Below, in pieces: positions 14,727 through 20,609 of a stretch of DNA of 64,000 bases (position 1 is its first letter; the number at the start of each line of letters is the position of its first letter). The translations under genes and the position numbers were made by a program. A model generated the notes under the pieces. That model saw nothing but the letters and a program-made list of their open reading frames with translations. It did not search any database and was not told where the DNA came from. Source of the stretch: Candidatus Nitrospira kreftii. GTDB lineage: Bacteria; Nitrospirota; Nitrospiria; Nitrospirales; Nitrospiraceae. The stretch covers positions 620,001-684,000 of the forward strand of contig CP047423.1 in the NCBI GenBank assembly GCA_014058405.1. The letters run 5' to 3'.

Positions 14727-15076
14727 GGGGGCGACCGGTTTCGACGGGGGTACTGAGGTCACTGTCGCATGTCGAGCTCTCGGGAACTCGTAAAAGTCCG
14801 AGAAAACGCAACTGCCAATCAAGAACTGGCACTCGCAGCCTAATTTAGGCTGAGACGTCGTTCCATCTGAGGCCCGCGGGGGTGGAATGGCGCGATGCAG
14901 CGGGCTGGTCCAAAGTCGGTGCTCAGCGGCTGCGGACGAGAATTTTCTGGGCTAGTGGCTGTTCTAAGCCTGCCGACGGGCGTGGATGGCTGCGAAACTT
15001 AAATTGTCGGCTACACATGTAGACACAGTGCACTGACGATCTTCGGACAGGGGTTCAACTCCCCTCGCCTCCACCA
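14727..15076 (+). ncRNA. ssrA: tmRNA (ssrA)
   Basis: One-piece transfer-messenger RNA of about 350 nt that rescues stalled ribosomes. The 5' end GGGGGCG (14727-14733) pairs with CGCCTCC before the encoded ACCA at the 3' end. The hallmark GACCGGTTTCGACGGGG follows the 5' acceptor strand, and the T-arm GGTTCAACTCCCC precedes the acceptor. An internal frame encodes the proteolysis tag ending LALAA. The 3' CCA is genome-encoded. The accessory island starts directly after it, as is common for elements that integrate at ssrA. Confidence 0.97.
14802..14843 (+). other. tmRNA tag-peptide reading frame (ENATANQELALAA)
   Basis: Thirteen codons and TAA. The C-terminal ALAA is the usual ClpXP/ClpAP degron. 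The upstream context AAGTC corresponds to the usual TAGTC before the resume codon, which would make CGA (arginine, 14799-14801) the resume codon instead of the common GCN. Whether CGA or GAA is decoded first cannot be settled from sequence alone. Confidence 0.75.
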
Positions 15077-15401
15077 AACAGAGCTCGCTCGACCCGGAGC
15101 CATTTACAATGGTTCCGGGCGACGGGATAAACTTCGCCAGCGCTCCCTTGTCTTGCATGTTTCGTGTGTATCGCCCGCTCTTCATCGCCATATCGTCAAT
15201 GACCTGCTTGAACGTGTAGCTCGTCTCGATCGCTTCACGGCCTAACCGAGATTCCTCGCTCATCACGAGAACTATACCCCCAACAGTAAGTCCTCAGACT
15301 TTCTCTTCAATAGTTTTGCCTAATATTTCGGGGATCTGGAGAATTTGGCCGGTAGCGTTCTACGGTCTTTTTACCTGACAGGGTGACCTTCCATTTGTGA
15401 G
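15077..15401. other. Gene-free junction between tmRNA and the island
   Basis: Contains the hairpin after ssrA and otherwise no intact gene. A minus-strand open frame (15266 back into ssrA) runs across the tmRNA and is an artefact there; its upstream part might be debris of a lost gene. No integrase gene is present. Confidence 0.4.
15093..15119 (+). terminator. Hairpin after tmRNA
   Basis: An 11-bp stem (15093-15103 with 15109-15119, one G-T pair) around a 5-base loop, beginning 17 bases after the tmRNA CCA end. No T-run follows, so it may be a weak terminator or a processing signal. Confidence 0.4.
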
Positions 15402-15542
15402 CTATGCGGCATTTTTACCCTTGAAATACTGCTCGAGCAAATGCCGAATGAGCCACGCCGCACTCATGCCGCGTTTGCGTTCGGCGTCGGGTTTGGCTTT
15501 GAGAGACTGTTGAATCTGTATGGACATTCGCGTCATCTTCAT
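15402..15542 (-). CDS. Small ribbon-helix-helix (CopG-like) protein
   Basis: Protein of 46 aa. MTRMSIQIQQSLKAK gives the N-terminal beta strand, and GMSAAWLIRHLLEQYFKGK a second helix with the spacing of ribbon-helix-helix DNA-binding proteins such as CopG antitoxins. AGAGGTGG precedes the ATG at 15542; a second ATG (15536) is possible. No toxin gene is coupled to it. A second, unrelated ribbon-helix-helix gene lies just beyond on the opposite strand. Confidence 0.6.
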   Translation of the reverse strand: MKMTRMSIQIQQSLKAKPDAERKRGMSAAWLIRHLLEQYFKGKNAA

Positions 15543-15636
15543 AACCACCTCTTAATGACAGCGTGCTATCTTTTAACATGCATAGCATGTCAACAGGCGT
15601 TTACCATTGTTGGACACCTGTGATACCTTCCACCAC

Positions 15637-15828
15637 ATGTTGAAACCAAAAGAGCCTGTGGAGGCCGCAGGGTCATGGGTATTCCGGGATATCCCCAGAG
15701 ACCTAATGATCAAGATAAAAATTGCTGCTGCGGTTCAGAGAAAGTCCGTGAAGCAATTGCTCATTGATCTATCCCGTGAGCATATTGCGGAATTCGAAAA
15801 GAAAGGGCTGCTACCGAAGGGGAAATAG
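15637..15828 (+). CDS. Ribbon-helix-helix (Arc-like) DNA-binding protein
   Basis: Protein of 63 aa. SWVFRDIPRDLMIKIKIAAA is the beta strand and first helix, and RKSVKQLLIDLSREHIAEF the second helix of a ribbon-helix-helix fold. Likely an antitoxin-type or plasmid/phage-type small regulator. ATG 15637 is preferred to a TTG 30 bases upstream. The last codons (LLPKGK and stop) are part of a 24-base sequence repeated at 16083-16106. Confidence 0.6.
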   Translation: MLKPKEPVEAAGSWVFRDIPRDLMIKIKIAAAVQRKSVKQLLIDLSREHIAEFEKKGLLPKGK

Positions 15829-15830
15829 GA
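15807..15830 (+). repeat. Direct repeat, copy 1
   Basis: 24 bases covering the last codons of the ribbon-helix-helix gene; 21 of 24 match the copy at 16083-16106. The two copies flank the superinfection-immunity-like gene. Confidence 0.6.
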
Positions 15831-15867
15831 GCGATATCCGTACGACCTAGAATGAAGGGTGCGACCC

Positions 15868-16071
15868 ATGGACGATGATAGCCTCAGTAGTCTCTACGTC
15901 GTGGGCGCGACTTGCATCTATTTCCTTCCCGCGTTTCTCGCCCTCTGGCGAGGGCATCCCAGTTGCATCCCGATTTTGATCGTGAATCTCTTGTTAGGAT
16001 GGACCGTGATCGGCTGGGTAGGCACGTTGGTTTGGGCGTTAAAGCGCCGACAGGGAGAACACGAATCCTGA
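15868..16071 (+). CDS. Superinfection immunity-like small membrane protein
   Basis: Protein of 67 aa with two hydrophobic segments (about 9-26 and 37-57). The pattern YFLPAFLALWRGH and LNLLLGWTVIGW-like segment (here VNLLLGWTVIGWVGTLVWAL) matches the superinfection immunity protein family (phage T4 Imm type), which blocks DNA injection by related phages. Small proteins of this family also occur widely on islands without a proven role. ATG 15868 has a G-rich region just upstream; a GTG at 15859 is in frame. It is flanked by short direct repeats, suggesting a cassette. Confidence 0.7.
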   Translation: MDDDSLSSLYVVGATCIYFLPAFLALWRGHPSCIPILIVNLLLGWTVIGWVGTLVWALKRRQGEHES

Positions 16072-16082
16072 GCGCTTAAAGA

Positions 16083-16106
16083 ACTGCTGCCGAAGGGGAA
16101 ATAAGA
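16083..16106 (+). repeat. Direct repeat, copy 2
   Basis: Matches 15807-15830 at 21 of 24 bases and would again encode LLPKGK and a stop, but without an upstream gene in frame. It looks like the tail of a second ribbon-helix-helix gene or a duplication scar. Confidence 0.55.
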
Positions 16107-16433
16107 AAGCAAGGGCCGTGAAGATCGGTACTGACCAGCATTTAACGGACAGTTGACCGCGTTTGTTAAAGAGGGTAGCTTGAGTTGATAAAGGATTAGA
16201 GTGTCTATGAAGCCTTTCATAATCAAACATGGTGAGTTACAGCTCCAAGCTTCGTTGGCCGTTCCAATGTATGCGTTCCTTGATGGGCCAGCCTCTATGA
16301 TACACTCTGCACTGTTTGAAAGGTTTGCATCATTAGGCGCGAGCTTGAACGATATTAAGATCAGCTCGGGGATTCCCAACCTGAATGAACTAGGTCTTAC
16401 GTATCACCTTTTAGCTTTCAACGCCCTAGTTAA

Positions 16434-16437
16434 ACTT
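16434..16437 (+). repeat. Target-site duplication ACTT, left copy
   Basis: ACTT directly left of the IS; the second copy is at 17688-17691. A 4-bp duplication is in the range for IS3-family elements. Confidence 0.75.
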
Positions 16438-16464
16438 TGACCTTCCCCCAGTTTCATGGACACC
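16438..16464 (+). repeat. IS3 left terminal inverted repeat
   Basis: 27 bases, pairing with 17661-17687 at 23 positions; both ends begin TGACCTTCCCCC when read inward. Confidence 0.85.
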
Positions 16465-16467
16465 AGG

Positions 16468-17331
16468 CTACGCGACTGCGGCCCTTGCTTCGTACTCGGC
16501 CGGGGAGTCATAGCCGAGGGTCGAGTGCCGACGCGTCCGATTGTAGAACACCTCGATGTATTCGAAAATGTCCTGTTTCGCTTCCGCTCGTGTGGCATAG
16601 TGCCGATGGTACACGAGTTCCTGCTTCAATGTTCCGAAGAAGCTCTCGACACAGGCGTTGTCCCAGCAATTGCCGGTGCGGCTCATACTGGCTGTGATGC
16701 CATGCGTGGTGAGCAACTGCTGGTAGGCCTCTGCCGCATATTGACTCCCGCGATCGGAGTGATGCAGGAGTCCTGCTGTGGGCTGCCGCGTGGCGAGCGC
16801 CATGCGGAGGGCCTGTTCGGTTAAATCTCCGGTCAAGCGCGGGCCCATCGCCCAGCCGATGACGGCACGCGAGTACAGATCCAGCAGCACGGCCAGATAC
16901 AGCCAGCCCTCCATTGTCCAGACGTAGGTGATATCGCCTGCCCAGACCTGGTTGGGCTGGGGCACCCTGAACTGGCGGTCAAGCGTGTTAGCCGCCACGG
17001 GCAAGCCGTGCGACGAGTATGTGGTAGCCCGCCACTTCTTCACGGTCTTGGCCCGGAGGCCATTGTGACGCATTAGCCGCGCCACGCGATGCTCTCCCAC
17101 CCGGTGACCCTGTTTGCGGAGCGCCCGCCAAATACTCGGACTGCCGTAGGTCTGGCGACTGTCCTGATGGAGCACGCGGATTGTGACCAGGAGCGTCCGA
17201 TTGGCGACCGCCTGCCGACTCTCAGGACGTCCGCGCCACGCATAATACCCCGCAGGGGAGACCGCCAGTGCTCGGCACATGAGGCGGATCGGATAGCGAC
17301 GGTCGTGCTCCTGGATCGCGCGGTATCTCAT
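16468..17331 (-). CDS. IS3-family transposase OrfB
   Basis: Integrase-core protein of 287 aa. HTH_21-like segment at the N-terminus (VSPAGYYAWRGRP), then the rve integrase core with the DDE triad: first Asp in WAGDITYVWT, second in LLHHSDRGSQYAA, Glu in NACVESFFGTLKQE; the C-terminal SPAEYEARA is typical. The start ATG overlaps the orfA stop (ATGA), and a -1 frameshift site upstream can fuse it to OrfA. Confidence 0.95.
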   Translation of the reverse strand: MRYRAIQEHDRRYPIRLMCRALAVSPAGYYAWRGRPESRQAVANRTLLVTIRVLHQDSRQTYGSPSIWRALRKQGHRVGEHRVARLMRHNGLRAKTVKKWRATTYSSHGLPVAANTLDRQFRVPQPNQVWAGDITYVWTMEGWLYLAVLLDLYSRAVIGWAMGPRLTGDLTEQALRMALATRQPTAGLLHHSDRGSQYAAEAYQQLLTTHGITASMSRTGNCWDNACVESFFGTLKQELVYHRHYATRAEAKQDIFEYIEVFYNRTRRHSTLGYDSPAEYEARAAVA

Positions 17332-17624
17332 TGGGACTCCCTCGCGAAGAACGCCGCCGCACGTTTTAAAAAATCCCGCTCCTGCTTCAGGACGGCATTT
17401 TCACGCCGCAGTCGGGCCAGTTCGGCCTCCTCAGCTCGGAGGTCCTGCCGCGTCCTTCCACGCTCCTCTGCCTGCTGCTGCTCCGCCCGCCAGCGGTAGA
17501 GCAGATGGTCGGCAATGCCCAGATCTCTGGCTACGTGTGCAACCGGTCGTGCCGAGTCTCGGACCAACCGCACTGCTTCTGTCTTAAACTCTTCCGTATA
17601 CTGCCGTCTGGTCTTGGTGCTCAT
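17328..17624 (-). CDS. IS3-family transposase OrfA
   Basis: Protein of 98 aa: an N-terminal helix-turn-helix (RRQYTEEFKTEAVRLV, then HVARDLGIADHLLYRWR) that binds the IS ends, and a coiled-coil leucine zipper (EAELARLRRENAVLKQERDF) for multimerisation. ATG 17624 is preferred over an in-frame upstream start at 17645, which lies close to the terminal repeat. It ends ATGA over the orfB start. Confidence 0.92.
   Translation of the reverse strand: MSTKTRRQYTEEFKTEAVRLVRDSARPVAHVARDLGIADHLLYRWRAEQQQAEERGRTRQDLRAEEAELARLRRENAVLKQERDFLKRAAAFFARESQ
17364..17370 (-). promoter_or_regulatory. Programmed -1 frameshift heptamer T TTA AAA
   Basis: Read on the minus strand in the orfA frame as TTT-TTA-AAA. 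A one-base backward slip here leads into the orfB frame without meeting a stop, producing the OrfAB transposase typical of IS3 elements. Confidence 0.65.
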
Positions 17625-17660
17625 GCTGCCCTCCAATTTCATCAAACTCCTCCTTATACA

Positions 17661-17687
17661 GGTGTCTGTGAAATCGGGGGAAGGTCA
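17661..17687 (-). repeat. IS3 right terminal inverted repeat
   Basis: Right end of the IS, inverted relative to 16438-16464, followed directly by the second ACTT copy at 17688-17691. Confidence 0.85.
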
Positions 17688-18131
17688 ACTTTCGCTTGAT
17701 AAGGTTGAGATTAATTTTCTTGATACTACTCTCGTTACCCGCGATCGCGTAGAAGATGTCTACAGGAAGACTTTTGGAGCCATAGATGTTATCAGCACAA
17801 ATTACAAAATCAAAGAATTCAGTCTGACTAGAACGCTTCACGGCATTATAGAAGAGGAGAGCGTTTCAGAATTCATGCAAAGCTTTATCAGGACTATACC
17901 CAAGGGTCTTGGACCTATCGCTGGACAAGGAGCTGTCTTTTACTATTCTGGGGAGGGCCAGACAAAAGCTTCCTCTACGGTCGTCGATGTTTCGGCAAGG
18001 ATAGAGAACGGTCTCTTCGTACGACTCTCTGTGACGTTTGACGGCCAGCAAGTTTCTGTAGATGCCTTGCCCGAGATCGCTCAACAAGCATTTGATCATC
18101 AGACGGAAAGCCTAGGCTTAACCTTAAAATA

Positions 18132-18740
18132 ATGCCTGAATTACTCACTAGGACTGGTAATTGCGTTCCGAGACTGGCTCCCAGCACTGCTGAGCCTTGG
18201 GGTCCGCACATATTTGAATTTGCCAATCCAGGTCAGCAAAGGGCTATTCCCCAACTTTTTACTAAACCTCGATCTTATGAAAGCCCCGGGACTAACTTCA
18301 ACACGATCTCCTTTTTCCCATGCACTGAGCCACTATCTCTGTTTGAGAGCACAATACCGGAGACTTTTGAACAAGCTCTTTATGGTTATAGAAGCCTAGT
18401 CCTGCTTGGCCAGATCAAAGACTTGTTGTCCGAAGGAGAAATAGTAAAAGCCTTGAGAATGTTGGTAGAGGAGAAGGCATCTGGCAATAAGCTGAGCGAG
18501 CCTCTTCAGCGGTTAAGCGACACTCTAGATAAGCAGAGTGTTGTGAGGAAACCCGTTACAACTTTGCCCCGTACCACCGAAGCCACCTGGATCAAGAAGA
18601 ATTGGGATGCATACAGGGGCAAGTGGGTCGCAGTCTTAGGGGATCAGGCCGTAGCTTCGGGCACCACACTCAGAGAACTACTCGAAACCGTCAAAGAAAA
18701 GCAGCTCAGCCAACGCCCCATTATTCACCACATAAAATAG
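18132..18740 (+). CDS. Unknown protein with C-terminal DUF5678-like domain
   Basis: Protein of 202 aa without signal or membrane segments. Residues about 90-135 are helical. The C-terminal part (WIKKNWDAYRGKWVAVLGD to LRELLETVKEK, about 150-192) matches the short DUF5678 pattern W...Y.GKWVA...G..VA.G....L. The start ATG overlaps the stop of the IS-interrupted gene (TAATG), implying translational coupling, and the next gene follows after 4 bases. DUF5678 proteins often neighbour retropepsin-like proteins, as here. Function unknown. Confidence 0.65.
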   Translation: MPELLTRTGNCVPRLAPSTAEPWGPHIFEFANPGQQRAIPQLFTKPRSYESPGTNFNTISFFPCTEPLSLFESTIPETFEQALYGYRSLVLLGQIKDLLSEGEIVKALRMLVEEKASGNKLSEPLQRLSDTLDKQSVVRKPVTTLPRTTEATWIKKNWDAYRGKWVAVLGDQAVASGTTLRELLETVKEKQLSQRPIIHHIK

Positions 18741-18744
18741 GCTA

Positions 18745-19200
18745 ATGCTCACGGACAACGGTCAGAAGTTTACTACCGGCCTATGTCGGTATCAGGACGA
18801 TTTAGCAGAAAACCAATCCACTCTCTCAAAGCTTTTCATTCCGATCAGAATCGGTGACCTACCCGGTGACCTGTGGGCAATGGTAGACACCGGCGCCCCA
18901 TACTGCATCTTTGAAGCGGAAGTTTTAGAGGCACTAGGATATAGATTTGATCCGGCATTCATGATACCACTTTCTACCAGGCATGGCCTAATCAGAGGAA
19001 CCCCCCACATCATCACCCTTACTGTTCTGGCGAATGAAGGTGACTCCTTAGCGATAGAATCGATCTTCCTGGTTCCTGAGATAATGCCTCATGCCTGGAA
19101 GGGAAACTTTATTGGCTATGCGGGATGCCTTCAGCGATTTTGTTTTGCGGTCGATCCATCTAAAAACTTCTTCCACTTTGGGAAGTATCCCGACACTTAA
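18745..19200 (+). CDS. Retropepsin-like aspartic protease family protein
   Basis: Protein of 151 aa. MVDTGAPYCIF (about 47-57) carries the Asp-Thr-Gly-Ala catalytic motif of retroviral-type aspartic proteases, preceded by a beta strand IPIRIGDLPGDLWA. The later hydrophobic-hydrophobic-Gly segment (GNFIGYAGCL, about 124-133) fits the family's second conserved patch. Such proteins act as homodimers; substrate unknown. It lies 4 bases after the DUF5678-like gene, and the three genes form one cassette. The base composition is lower in GC than neighbouring core genes. Confidence 0.68.
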   Translation: MLTDNGQKFTTGLCRYQDDLAENQSTLSKLFIPIRIGDLPGDLWAMVDTGAPYCIFEAEVLEALGYRFDPAFMIPLSTRHGLIRGTPHIITLTVLANEGDSLAIESIFLVPEIMPHAWKGNFIGYAGCLQRFCFAVDPSKNFFHFGKYPDT

Positions 19201-19234
19201 CCCATAACGTGTTTACAATCGCCAGGCTGTTGGT

Positions 19235-20080
19235 TCAAGAATCGAGATTCAATCGCTTCATGATCAAAGATCCGTGATCATCTACCCAGCACTGGAACCT
19301 TGCGGGAAGGTAGATACCGCGATCTGCCCGAATGGCCACATATAGGTCACGCCGGTTGTGTGGTCTAAATAGCTTTCCCTCCTTACTTGCATCATCCCGT
19401 TCAAGCAGTTCAACTGAGATACAATAAGGACAATCTTGCTTCCTATAAGAAATCAATTTCACCCATGCGGCGTCTTTCTTGCGAATATGAGGAGAGGATG
19501 CCTCCAAGGGCAATGTGTATCCCAGGTAAGTGGATAATTCTTCAGAACCTTCCTCGACCACTTTTTCAAGTTTCACCGTCACATTTTCTAGATCTATATT
19601 CGAGGTGTTTTTTAAAAGCATTGAGTAGCGTTGGACGTTTACTTGCTTGCCATTTTCCGTTTCCATTTCCCACGTGAAATACCGTTGAGGGTATCCATCA
19701 GTAAGAAATTCGACCTCCACGGTGGGATTATTGGAATTGAATCCCCCCTCCATATGAATTGCCTTTTGATGTGTGTCGTTTTCTGCATCATACGGAGATT
19801 TTTCCACCTGTAGTGCTACAGGGTGCTTGAGTGCTGTTCTTCGTTCCCACCAAGCCACAACATTGTTAAAAATCACCAAGCTGGAAGCTAGTGAAACCAA
19901 TGCCCCGATAAGTAAGGCTGGCCAACCCCATTGCATAGTCCATCCACCTATAAACGTAATTACGGTAATGAGGACACTCCATACGATTGGCCAGAAGTTA
20001 CCTGGCAGGATGGCTTGAAGGATGGATTGAAAAAGTGATCCGGCAATTGCCTCAGCAAACCATTTTTTAATCTTGGACAT
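19235..20080 (-). CDS. Membrane-anchored protein of unknown function
   Basis: Protein of 281 aa. Two hydrophobic segments (about 30-47 and 53-72) near the N-terminus, then a soluble domain of about 200 residues rich in beta strands with motifs EVEFLTDGYPQRYF and SMLLKNTSNIDLENVTVKLE, resembling an Ig-like/beta-sandwich fold. No family recognised. It converges with the three-gene cassette (35-base gap) and has the same AT-rich composition, so it belongs to the island. Confidence 0.65.
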   Translation of the reverse strand: MSKIKKWFAEAIAGSLFQSILQAILPGNFWPIVWSVLITVITFIGGWTMQWGWPALLIGALVSLASSLVIFNNVVAWWERRTALKHPVALQVEKSPYDAENDTHQKAIHMEGGFNSNNPTVEVEFLTDGYPQRYFTWEMETENGKQVNVQRYSMLLKNTSNIDLENVTVKLEKVVEEGSEELSTYLGYTLPLEASSPHIRKKDAAWVKLISYRKQDCPYCISVELLERDDASKEGKLFRPHNRRDLYVAIRADRGIYLPARFQCWVDDHGSLIMKRLNLDS

Positions 20081-20132
20081 CGCGCACCCCCTCGGTCTGA
20101 GGGGTGCATTGTAGCCGTGCTATCACATGGTG

Positions 20133-20309
20133 TCATGTACGTAGACTCACTGGGGAGCGCCATTGGCTCCCCTGCTCGGCTAGTTTGGCCGTGAGTCGCC
20201 CATTCTCACCCTGGAGCGCCCGGCAGGCGTCCAGAAGTCCCTGTGTGAGTTCTGGAGACAGGTCATCATCGTTCGCAAGGTAGCGTTCATACACAAATAG
20301 ATCAATCAT
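20133..20309 (-). CDS. Small hypothetical protein
   Basis: 58 aa, starting MIDLFVYERYLANDDDLS and continuing as a helix with LLDACRALQGENGRL. A GAGGT ribosome-binding site lies 6-7 bases before the ATG. The amphipathic C-terminal helix could be a short coiled coil. No family recognised. It lies upstream of the membrane protein on the same strand, 52 bases away, and may be cotranscribed with it. Confidence 0.45.
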   Translation of the reverse strand: MIDLFVYERYLANDDDLSPELTQGLLDACRALQGENGRLTAKLAEQGSQWRSPVSLRT

Positions 20310-20609
20310 TTCGACCTCACGTCAGGTTCCATAGGGCCGCTGTCGGATCAAAGTAGCGAACAGCTGCGGCAGAGCAAGTCCACGATCCGCATAGATCCTC
20401 CTTGGTGGGTAGAATAAGTTTTGGTCATATGCGCACGCGAACCTCAGGGGGCTGGTTCCGGAGCTAAGGGAATCGTCGCTGATGCCGTGCCCCCAGTCGG
20501 CCATTGGGCGGCCTCTAGGGCGGTGGTGCGGAATCCTGGATCAATGGGTTTATGTACGTATACTCCACGAGTATATTTGGACTATCATGTCACCGTACAC
20601 TAACCACAT
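20310..20609. other. Intergenic region at the right edge of the island
   Basis: 300 bases with no convincing gene. The perfect inverted repeat TATACT-CCACG-AGTATA (20559-20564/20570-20575) lies 35-50 bases before otsA. No copy of the tmRNA 3' end was seen, so the island's right boundary is not defined. Confidence 0.4.
20559..20575. promoter_or_regulatory. Inverted repeat upstream of otsA
   Basis: TATACT and AGTATA form a perfect 6-bp dyad around CCACG. Each arm also resembles a -10 element, so it may be an operator overlapping a promoter. Evidence is the symmetry and position only. Confidence 0.35.

What the first reader, a model, noticed from the sequence alone, without database searches (positions are those of the whole stretch)
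16201..19200. Three-gene island cassette: unknown protein, DUF5678-like protein, retropepsin-like protease
The genes are tightly coupled (TAATG overlap, then a 4-base gap), AT-rich, and located in an island next to tmRNA with other defence-like genes. A DTGA aspartic protease with a DUF5678-like partner and an unknown first protein could be a toxin/antitoxin or defence-type system controlled by proteolysis. The function is inference; the motifs and the operon are seen. IS inactivation of the first gene would fit a costly component.
Basis: partly seen in the sequence, partly recalled or inferred. Interest (0 to 1): 0.6.

Follow-up and report, generated by a model that had tools for sequence, protein, structure and literature searches.

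The report
Three-gene toxin-antitoxin-like cassette with aspartic protease
A patchily distributed bacterial three-gene cassette puts an HIV-type aspartic protease in the operon position where related cassettes carry RNA-cutting toxins of the PIN or HEPN type, which suggests the protease is the toxin or effector of a modular toxin-antitoxin-like system.

Summary
An IS-split gene 1 (empty site gives an open 223-codon frame), a DUF5678 protein and a retropepsin-like DTGA protease form a tight operon in a 5.4-kb insertion between tmRNA and otsA; the closest relative sampled lacks it. All 6 of 175 family genomes with the protease have all three genes. A scan of 84,980 species genomes gave 38 protease loci: 37 have the DUF5678 gene directly upstream, 11 a gene 1. 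Searching with gene 1 alone was most informative. In 18 genomes it always precedes a two-gene module: DUF5678+protease (11), or a third gene that is PIN (3), HEPN (3) or HicA-like (1, by eye). Gene 1 models confidently with the two-repeat topology of TATA-binding protein (TBP). TIGR04255 proteins share that topology and can replace gene 1 before DUF5678+protease (Oscillochloris), before the same HEPN (Thermus) and before an annotated zeta toxin (Vibrio plasmid). The protease therefore sits in a slot used by toxins. Best reading: polymorphic TA- or abortive-infection-like system with protease as effector, DUF5678 protein as antitoxin/substrate and the TBP-like protein as accessory regulator or sensor. 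Toxicity, neutralisation and defence are inferred. The IS (nine identical genome copies) is a recent accident, not evidence of cost.

The parts
16207..18132 (+). Gene 1, split by the IS: N-terminal part 16207-16437, C-terminal part 17688-18132. TBP-like-fold protein of 220-230 aa (modelled on intact relatives).
   Evidence: Flanks give one open 223-codon frame. Both parts match the profile of intact homologues in five relatives. Structure model of a relative: pLDDT 89.7, Foldseek top hits TBP.
16438..17687 (-). IS3-type insertion sequence, 1250 bp: orfA 17328-17645 and orfB 16468-17331 on the minus strand, ACTT target duplication.
   Evidence: nine full-length identical copies in the genome.
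18132..18740 (+). Gene 2: 202 aa, variable N-terminal part, helical TPR-like middle, C-terminal DUF5678.
   Evidence: PF18929 E 4.5e-7. All 26 aligned relatives hit DUF5678 at E up to 0.5 (best 5.5e-9), 6 also a TPR model.
18745..19200 (+). Gene 3: 151 aa retropepsin-like aspartic protease, D48-T-G-A plus F-I-G-Y-x-G motif.
   Evidence: Asp48 invariant in 26 relatives.
15161..20550 (.). Segment inserted between the tmRNA gene and otsA that carries the cassette.
   Evidence: Absent at the same place in G126 (L100), where tmRNA and otsA are adjacent.
14727..15076 (+). tmRNA gene at the left side of the variable segment.
   Evidence: ARAGORN and Rfam RF00023.
15859..16071 (+). Small membrane protein of the superinfection-immunity family (PF14373), upstream of the cassette; not shown to belong to it.
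   Evidence: PF14373 E 1.1e-16.

Best explanation
This is a mobile, three-gene, toxin-antitoxin-like cassette with exchangeable effectors. Gene 3 is the toxin or effector: a homodimeric retropepsin-like aspartic protease that cuts a host or invader protein when released. Gene 2 holds it in check as antitoxin, inhibitor or decoy substrate, probably binding through its conserved DUF5678 end. Gene 1, a two-repeat TBP-like-fold protein, is an accessory regulator or sensor (operon repressor, co-antitoxin or trigger detector) shared by cassettes whose effector is a PIN or HEPN nuclease-type protein instead. Shown: the operon, the domains, the co-occurrence, the effector swapping at the third position, and the shared predicted fold of p1 and TIGR04255. 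Inferred: toxicity, neutralisation, the trigger and the substrate.
For: (1) Genes 2+3 are an obligate-looking pair in 37 of 38 loci from Nitrospirota, Acidobacteriota, Rokubacteria, Cyanobacteria, gamma- and deltaproteobacteria and Chloroflexi; three genes in all six Nitrospira-family cases. (2) Searching with gene 1 alone gave 18 genomes, all with a two-gene module behind it: 11 DUF5678+protease, 3 PIN over the Pfam cut-off (E 6.6e-5, 1.6e-8, 1.5e-11), 3 HEPN (homologous to annotated HEPN proteins, E 1e-12 to 1e-17), 1 HicB/HicA-like by eye. (3) Gene 1 (pLDDT 89.7) and TIGR04255 (75.2) have the same element order; TBP chains are the only matches better than E 0.001 in each Foldseek search. 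TIGR04255 precedes DUF5678+protease in L047, the same HEPN in Thermus and a zeta-toxin-family gene in a Vibrio plasmid. (4) Patchy distribution: 6/175 family genomes; insertion next to tmRNA absent from the closest relative sampled; neighbours include an integrase and RHH/RelE-like genes; tandem copies in Hormoscilla, Argonema and Thiomargarita.
Against: No experiment. None of the cassette proteins matches a PADLOC model and no relative was found in the plasmid or viral collections with the protease or gene-1 queries. 24 of 38 loci with enough upstream sequence lack a recognisable gene 1, so it is not essential to the pair. TBP similarity rests on predicted structures with low TM-scores (0.22-0.44); p1 and TIGR04255 show no sequence similarity. 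A few proteases have DTA or DPA instead of DTG, so not all may be active. The HicB/HicA reading of L133 has no statistical support.
Confidence: 0.6

Rival explanations
1. Regulated-proteolysis module, not toxic: the protease matures or destroys the DUF5678 protein (or a host protein) to switch a stress or housekeeping response, like RimB or RloA; gene 1 is a regulator.
For: Characterised bacterial retropepsins do this: RimB trims polyglutamate from RpsF (PMC11957791) and RloA acts in osmotic stress (PMC12239564). Gene 2 has a variable N-terminal part and a conserved 'LAPPxV' linker before DUF5678 that could be a cleavage site (inference).
Against: Very patchy presence (6/175; 1/194 cyanobacteria), island location, tandem copies, and the third position being held elsewhere by PIN and HEPN proteins.
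Confidence: 0.22
2. Anti-phage abortive-infection system (a specific form of the best explanation): the same parts, but the cassette is kept off until phage infection is sensed by the TBP-like protein, when the protease kills or stalls the cell.
For: Patchy mobile distribution; genes 2 and 3 of TIGR04255 trios resemble the candidate defence pair PDC-M32A/B (E down to 1.3e-6 and 0.02); a SIR2-like ORF beside L152 by eye.
Against: No PADLOC hit for the protease cassette, no test of enrichment in defence islands, PDC-M32 is itself only a candidate.
Confidence: 0.35
3. The three genes are a coincidental neighbourhood; only genes 2+3 belong together.
For: 24 of 38 protease loci with enough upstream sequence have no recognisable gene 1.
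Against: Gene 1 is directly upstream in all family copies and, searched alone, always precedes a two-gene module of the same layout, in three phyla.
Confidence: 0.04

Closest known systems
TIGR04255 family (NCBIfam sporadTIGR04255)
   Same: Same element order and the same TBP hits in structure models; same first position in operons, and shares DUF5678+protease and HEPN partners with gene 1.
   Different: No sequence similarity to gene 1 (profile-profile probability below 1%); gene 1 does not reach the TIGR04255 model.
Type II toxin-antitoxin modules (VapBC, HEPN pairs, HicBA, epsilon-zeta) and three-component TA systems
   Same: Small tightly coupled genes, patchy and in variable segments, toxin-type third gene in sister cassettes.
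   Different: The effector here is an aspartic protease and the constant partner is a TBP-like-fold protein. No TA module with a retropepsin toxin turned up in the library search.
PanAT (Panacea domain) systems
   Same: One constant partner combined with many different toxin domains (PMC8832971).
   Different: A different domain (Panacea is DUF4065), so far as known; here a third, variable middle gene lies between the constant and the toxin-type gene.
RimB and RloA, bacterial retropepsin-like proteases
   Same: Retropepsin-type aspartic proteases in bacteria (PMC11957791, PMC12239564).
   Different: Those act in ribosome modification or osmotic stress, with ATP-grasp or transglutaminase-like partners; no DUF5678 or TBP-like gene is described with them.
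PDC-M32 (PADLOC phage defence candidate)
   Same: Genes 2 and 3 of several TIGR04255 trios weakly match PDC-M32A/B.
   Different: The protease cassette itself does not match.

Membership tests
Retropepsin-like aspartic protease (clan AA, family A2 type) | Catalytic D-T/S-G motif | tested here: met
   D48-T-G-A; Asp invariant in 26 relatives
Retropepsin-like aspartic protease (clan AA, family A2 type) | Profile match to Asp_protease_2 / gag-asp_proteas | tested here: met
   Window copy E 5.6e-4, just under cut-off; relatives to 4.6e-9
Retropepsin-like aspartic protease (clan AA, family A2 type) | Homodimer with peptidase activity | not testable with these tools
   Needs protein work
DUF5678 family | Match to PF18929 over its cut-off | tested here: met
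   30 bits against 23.2
TIGR04255 family | NCBIfam TIGR04255 score over 30 bits | tested here: not met
   No match for the two gene-1 pieces or for six intact homologues
TBP-like fold | Two repeats of beta-alpha-beta(4)-alpha and structural match to TBP | tested here: inconclusive
   Topology fits and only TBP chains hit better than E 0.001, but TM-scores are 0.30-0.44 on a predicted model of a relative
Type II toxin-antitoxin system | Two small genes, tightly coupled, co-occurring across genomes | tested here: met
   37 of 38 loci
Type II toxin-antitoxin system | One product toxic, the other neutralises it by binding | not testable with these tools
   Only guilt by association with PIN/HEPN
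Known anti-phage defence system | Match to a PADLOC model | tested here: not met
   No match at E up to 1 for genes 2 and 3 or for intact gene 1 of relatives

The most novel reading that the evidence does not exclude
A previously undescribed superfamily of polymorphic three-gene TA or abortive-infection systems, defined by a bacterial TBP-like-fold first gene (p1 or TIGR04255) whose exchangeable effectors include PIN, HEPN, zeta-type and, new as a toxin, a retropepsin-like aspartic protease inhibited by a DUF5678 protein.
Probability: 0.4. Interest if true: 0.85.

Novelty: new variant of a known kind. Interest (0 to 1): 0.68.

Why it matters
If true, it adds proteolysis by a retropepsin-type protease to the ways TA or abortive-infection systems stop a cell. 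It gives a testable role to two unnamed families (DUF5678 and TIGR04255) and to a third without any model (gene 1 here), and reveals a TBP-like fold as a shared regulatory or sensing part in bacteria. It also yields a search handle: the gene two places behind a TBP-like gene 1 is a candidate toxin, so new effectors can be listed by computation.

Tried and rejected
Gene 1 as a TIGR04255 member: rejected by sequence, kept as a shared predicted fold. Effector-associated domain 11 in gene 2: E 0.21, rejected; only 2 of 26 relatives show it, best E 0.04. Spread on plasmids or viruses: none found with the protease, gene 1 or the L047 TIGR04255 protein. Solved relatives of gene 1 by sequence: none; for the protease only DDI1, E 0.025. 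HicB/HicA in L133: appearance only; Pfam, NCBIfam, PDB and plasmid searches were all empty or chance-level. IS as a sign of cost: rejected, nine identical copies. A tmRNA 3'-end repeat as att site in the window: not found. Literature: 'TIGR04255' in no paper, 'DUF5678' in one unrelated paper of the open library.

Full report
What was checked. Gene 2 (18132-18740) starts inside the gene-1 stop (TAATG) and gene 3 (18745-19200) follows after four bases. Gene 1 is one reading frame split by a 1250-bp IS3-type element at 16438-17687 with perfect 12-bp ends and a 4-bp ACTT duplication; the joined flanks are open for 223 codons. Nine full-length identical copies of the element lie in the same 4.13-Mb genome, so the hit is recent and looks incidental. 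Intact copies of gene 1 exist in relatives.

Surroundings. The window's genus is probably Nitrospira, because the same-genus genome G082 shares its protease contig with the record named Nitrospira sp. in L015 (inference). The cassette sits between the tmRNA gene and otsA. In the closest relative sampled (G126, otsA 94% identical) these two are about 320 bp apart and window 15161-20550 is missing; in other relatives the interval is 2-17 kb or the genes are apart. This is a variable insertion place. The cassette is moderately AT-rich (44-48% G+C against 54.7%).

Distribution of the protease cassette. Of 175 family genomes six have the protease, and all six have all three genes in the same order. 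A scan of 84,980 species genomes found 38 loci with a recognisable protease in Nitrospirota, Acidobacteriota, Rokubacteria, Cyanobacteria, Thiotrichales, deltaproteobacteria, an alphaproteobacterium and Chloroflexi. In 37 the DUF5678 gene is immediately upstream; ten have gene 1 and one (L047, Oscillochloris) has a TIGR04255 gene in its place. Three further loci end too close upstream to tell, so 24 lack a recognisable gene 1. Tandem repeats of the pair occur in Hormoscilla, Argonema, Thiomargarita and one acidobacterium.

Gene 1 by itself. A profile of gene 1 was searched without reference to the protease. It occurs in 7 of 175 family genomes, 8 of 297 Acidobacteriota and 3 of 95 genomes of the Rokubacteria group. 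In all 18 it is followed by two further genes. In 11 they are DUF5678+protease. In 3 the third gene is a PIN domain over the Pfam cut-off (L135, L136, L137). In 3 it is a HEPN protein (L139, L140, L152), shown by mutual similarity and by similarity to proteins annotated HEPN in Gloeothece plasmids. In one (L133) it looks like HicA behind a HicB-like end, by eye only. This effector swapping is the main argument that the protease holds a toxin-type position. The gene-1 profile was built from protease-linked copies, so the share of protease modules among the 18 is likely inflated.

Fold of gene 1. The model of an intact relative is confident (pLDDT 89.7) and consists of two beta-alpha-beta-beta-beta-beta-alpha repeats (the second lacks one short strand). 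Its nine PDB matches with E below 0.001 are all TATA-binding proteins. The TIGR04255 protein of L047 gives a weaker model (75.2) with the same order of elements, and its 26 matches below 0.001 are again all TBP or TBP-containing complexes. TM-scores are low (0.22-0.44), so this is a shared predicted topology, not proven homology. The functional link is independent of the fold: the same HEPN effector follows p1 in L140 and TIGR04255 in Thermus brockianus, and DUF5678+protease follows both. Other TIGR04255 trios in Nitrospira carry genes similar to the candidate defence pair PDC-M32A/B or a DUF7689 protein, and one in an alphaproteobacterium an HTH protein; a Vibrio plasmid has an annotated zeta toxin.

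Mechanism. Gene 3 has what a retropepsin needs: the catalytic Asp, and the later FIGYxG motif, which I read as the usual hydrophobic-hydrophobic-Gly motif of the fold (the reading is inference). Because the pair 2+3 stands alone in many genomes, gene 2 is the natural candidate for the neutraliser or guarded substrate, and gene 1 for an accessory regulator or sensor. That the window copy lives with a broken gene 1 agrees with this, though the IS may also silence the whole operon. Which protein is cut, and what triggers the system, is unknown.

Limits. No toxicity, binding or phage data exist. The open library holds nothing on TIGR04255 and nothing relevant on DUF5678, but subscription papers and preprints were not searched. 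Genome samples were limited to three phyla for gene 1; a small fourth group gave an empty answer that carries no weight.

Noticed in passing
window 15859-16071: Small membrane protein of the superinfection-immunity family PF14373 (E 1.1e-16). It and the small ORF upstream (15607-15828) recur side by side near the tmRNA gene in another Nitrospira genome (L111).
   Followed up: partly
window 15807-15828 and 16083-16102: The end of the 15607 ORF (CTGCTACCGAAGGGGAAATA) is nearly repeated about 280 bp downstream, perhaps a remnant of a duplication or recombination.
   Followed up: no
L069, L071, L072, L073 (own genome near 1.035 Mb), L068, L076, L078: TIGR04255 genes of Nitrospira form other three-gene operons with different second and third genes (PDC-M32-like, DUF7689, proteins with an SQxCD or TQxCD motif).
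   Followed up: partly
L143 3501-3890: An unannotated HEPN gene on Thermus brockianus plasmid pTB1 directly behind TIGR04255 and a middle gene.
   Followed up: yes
L137: A p1-PIN trio and a TIGR04255 trio lie side by side on one acidobacterial contig.
   Followed up: partly
L030, L033, L050: Cyanobacterial DUF5678 genes carry N-terminal stretches that resemble antitoxins (RelB-like E 4e-4 in L033, below cut-off).
   Followed up: partly
window 19235-20080, minus strand: 281-aa predicted membrane protein of unknown family inside the same inserted segment.
   Followed up: no
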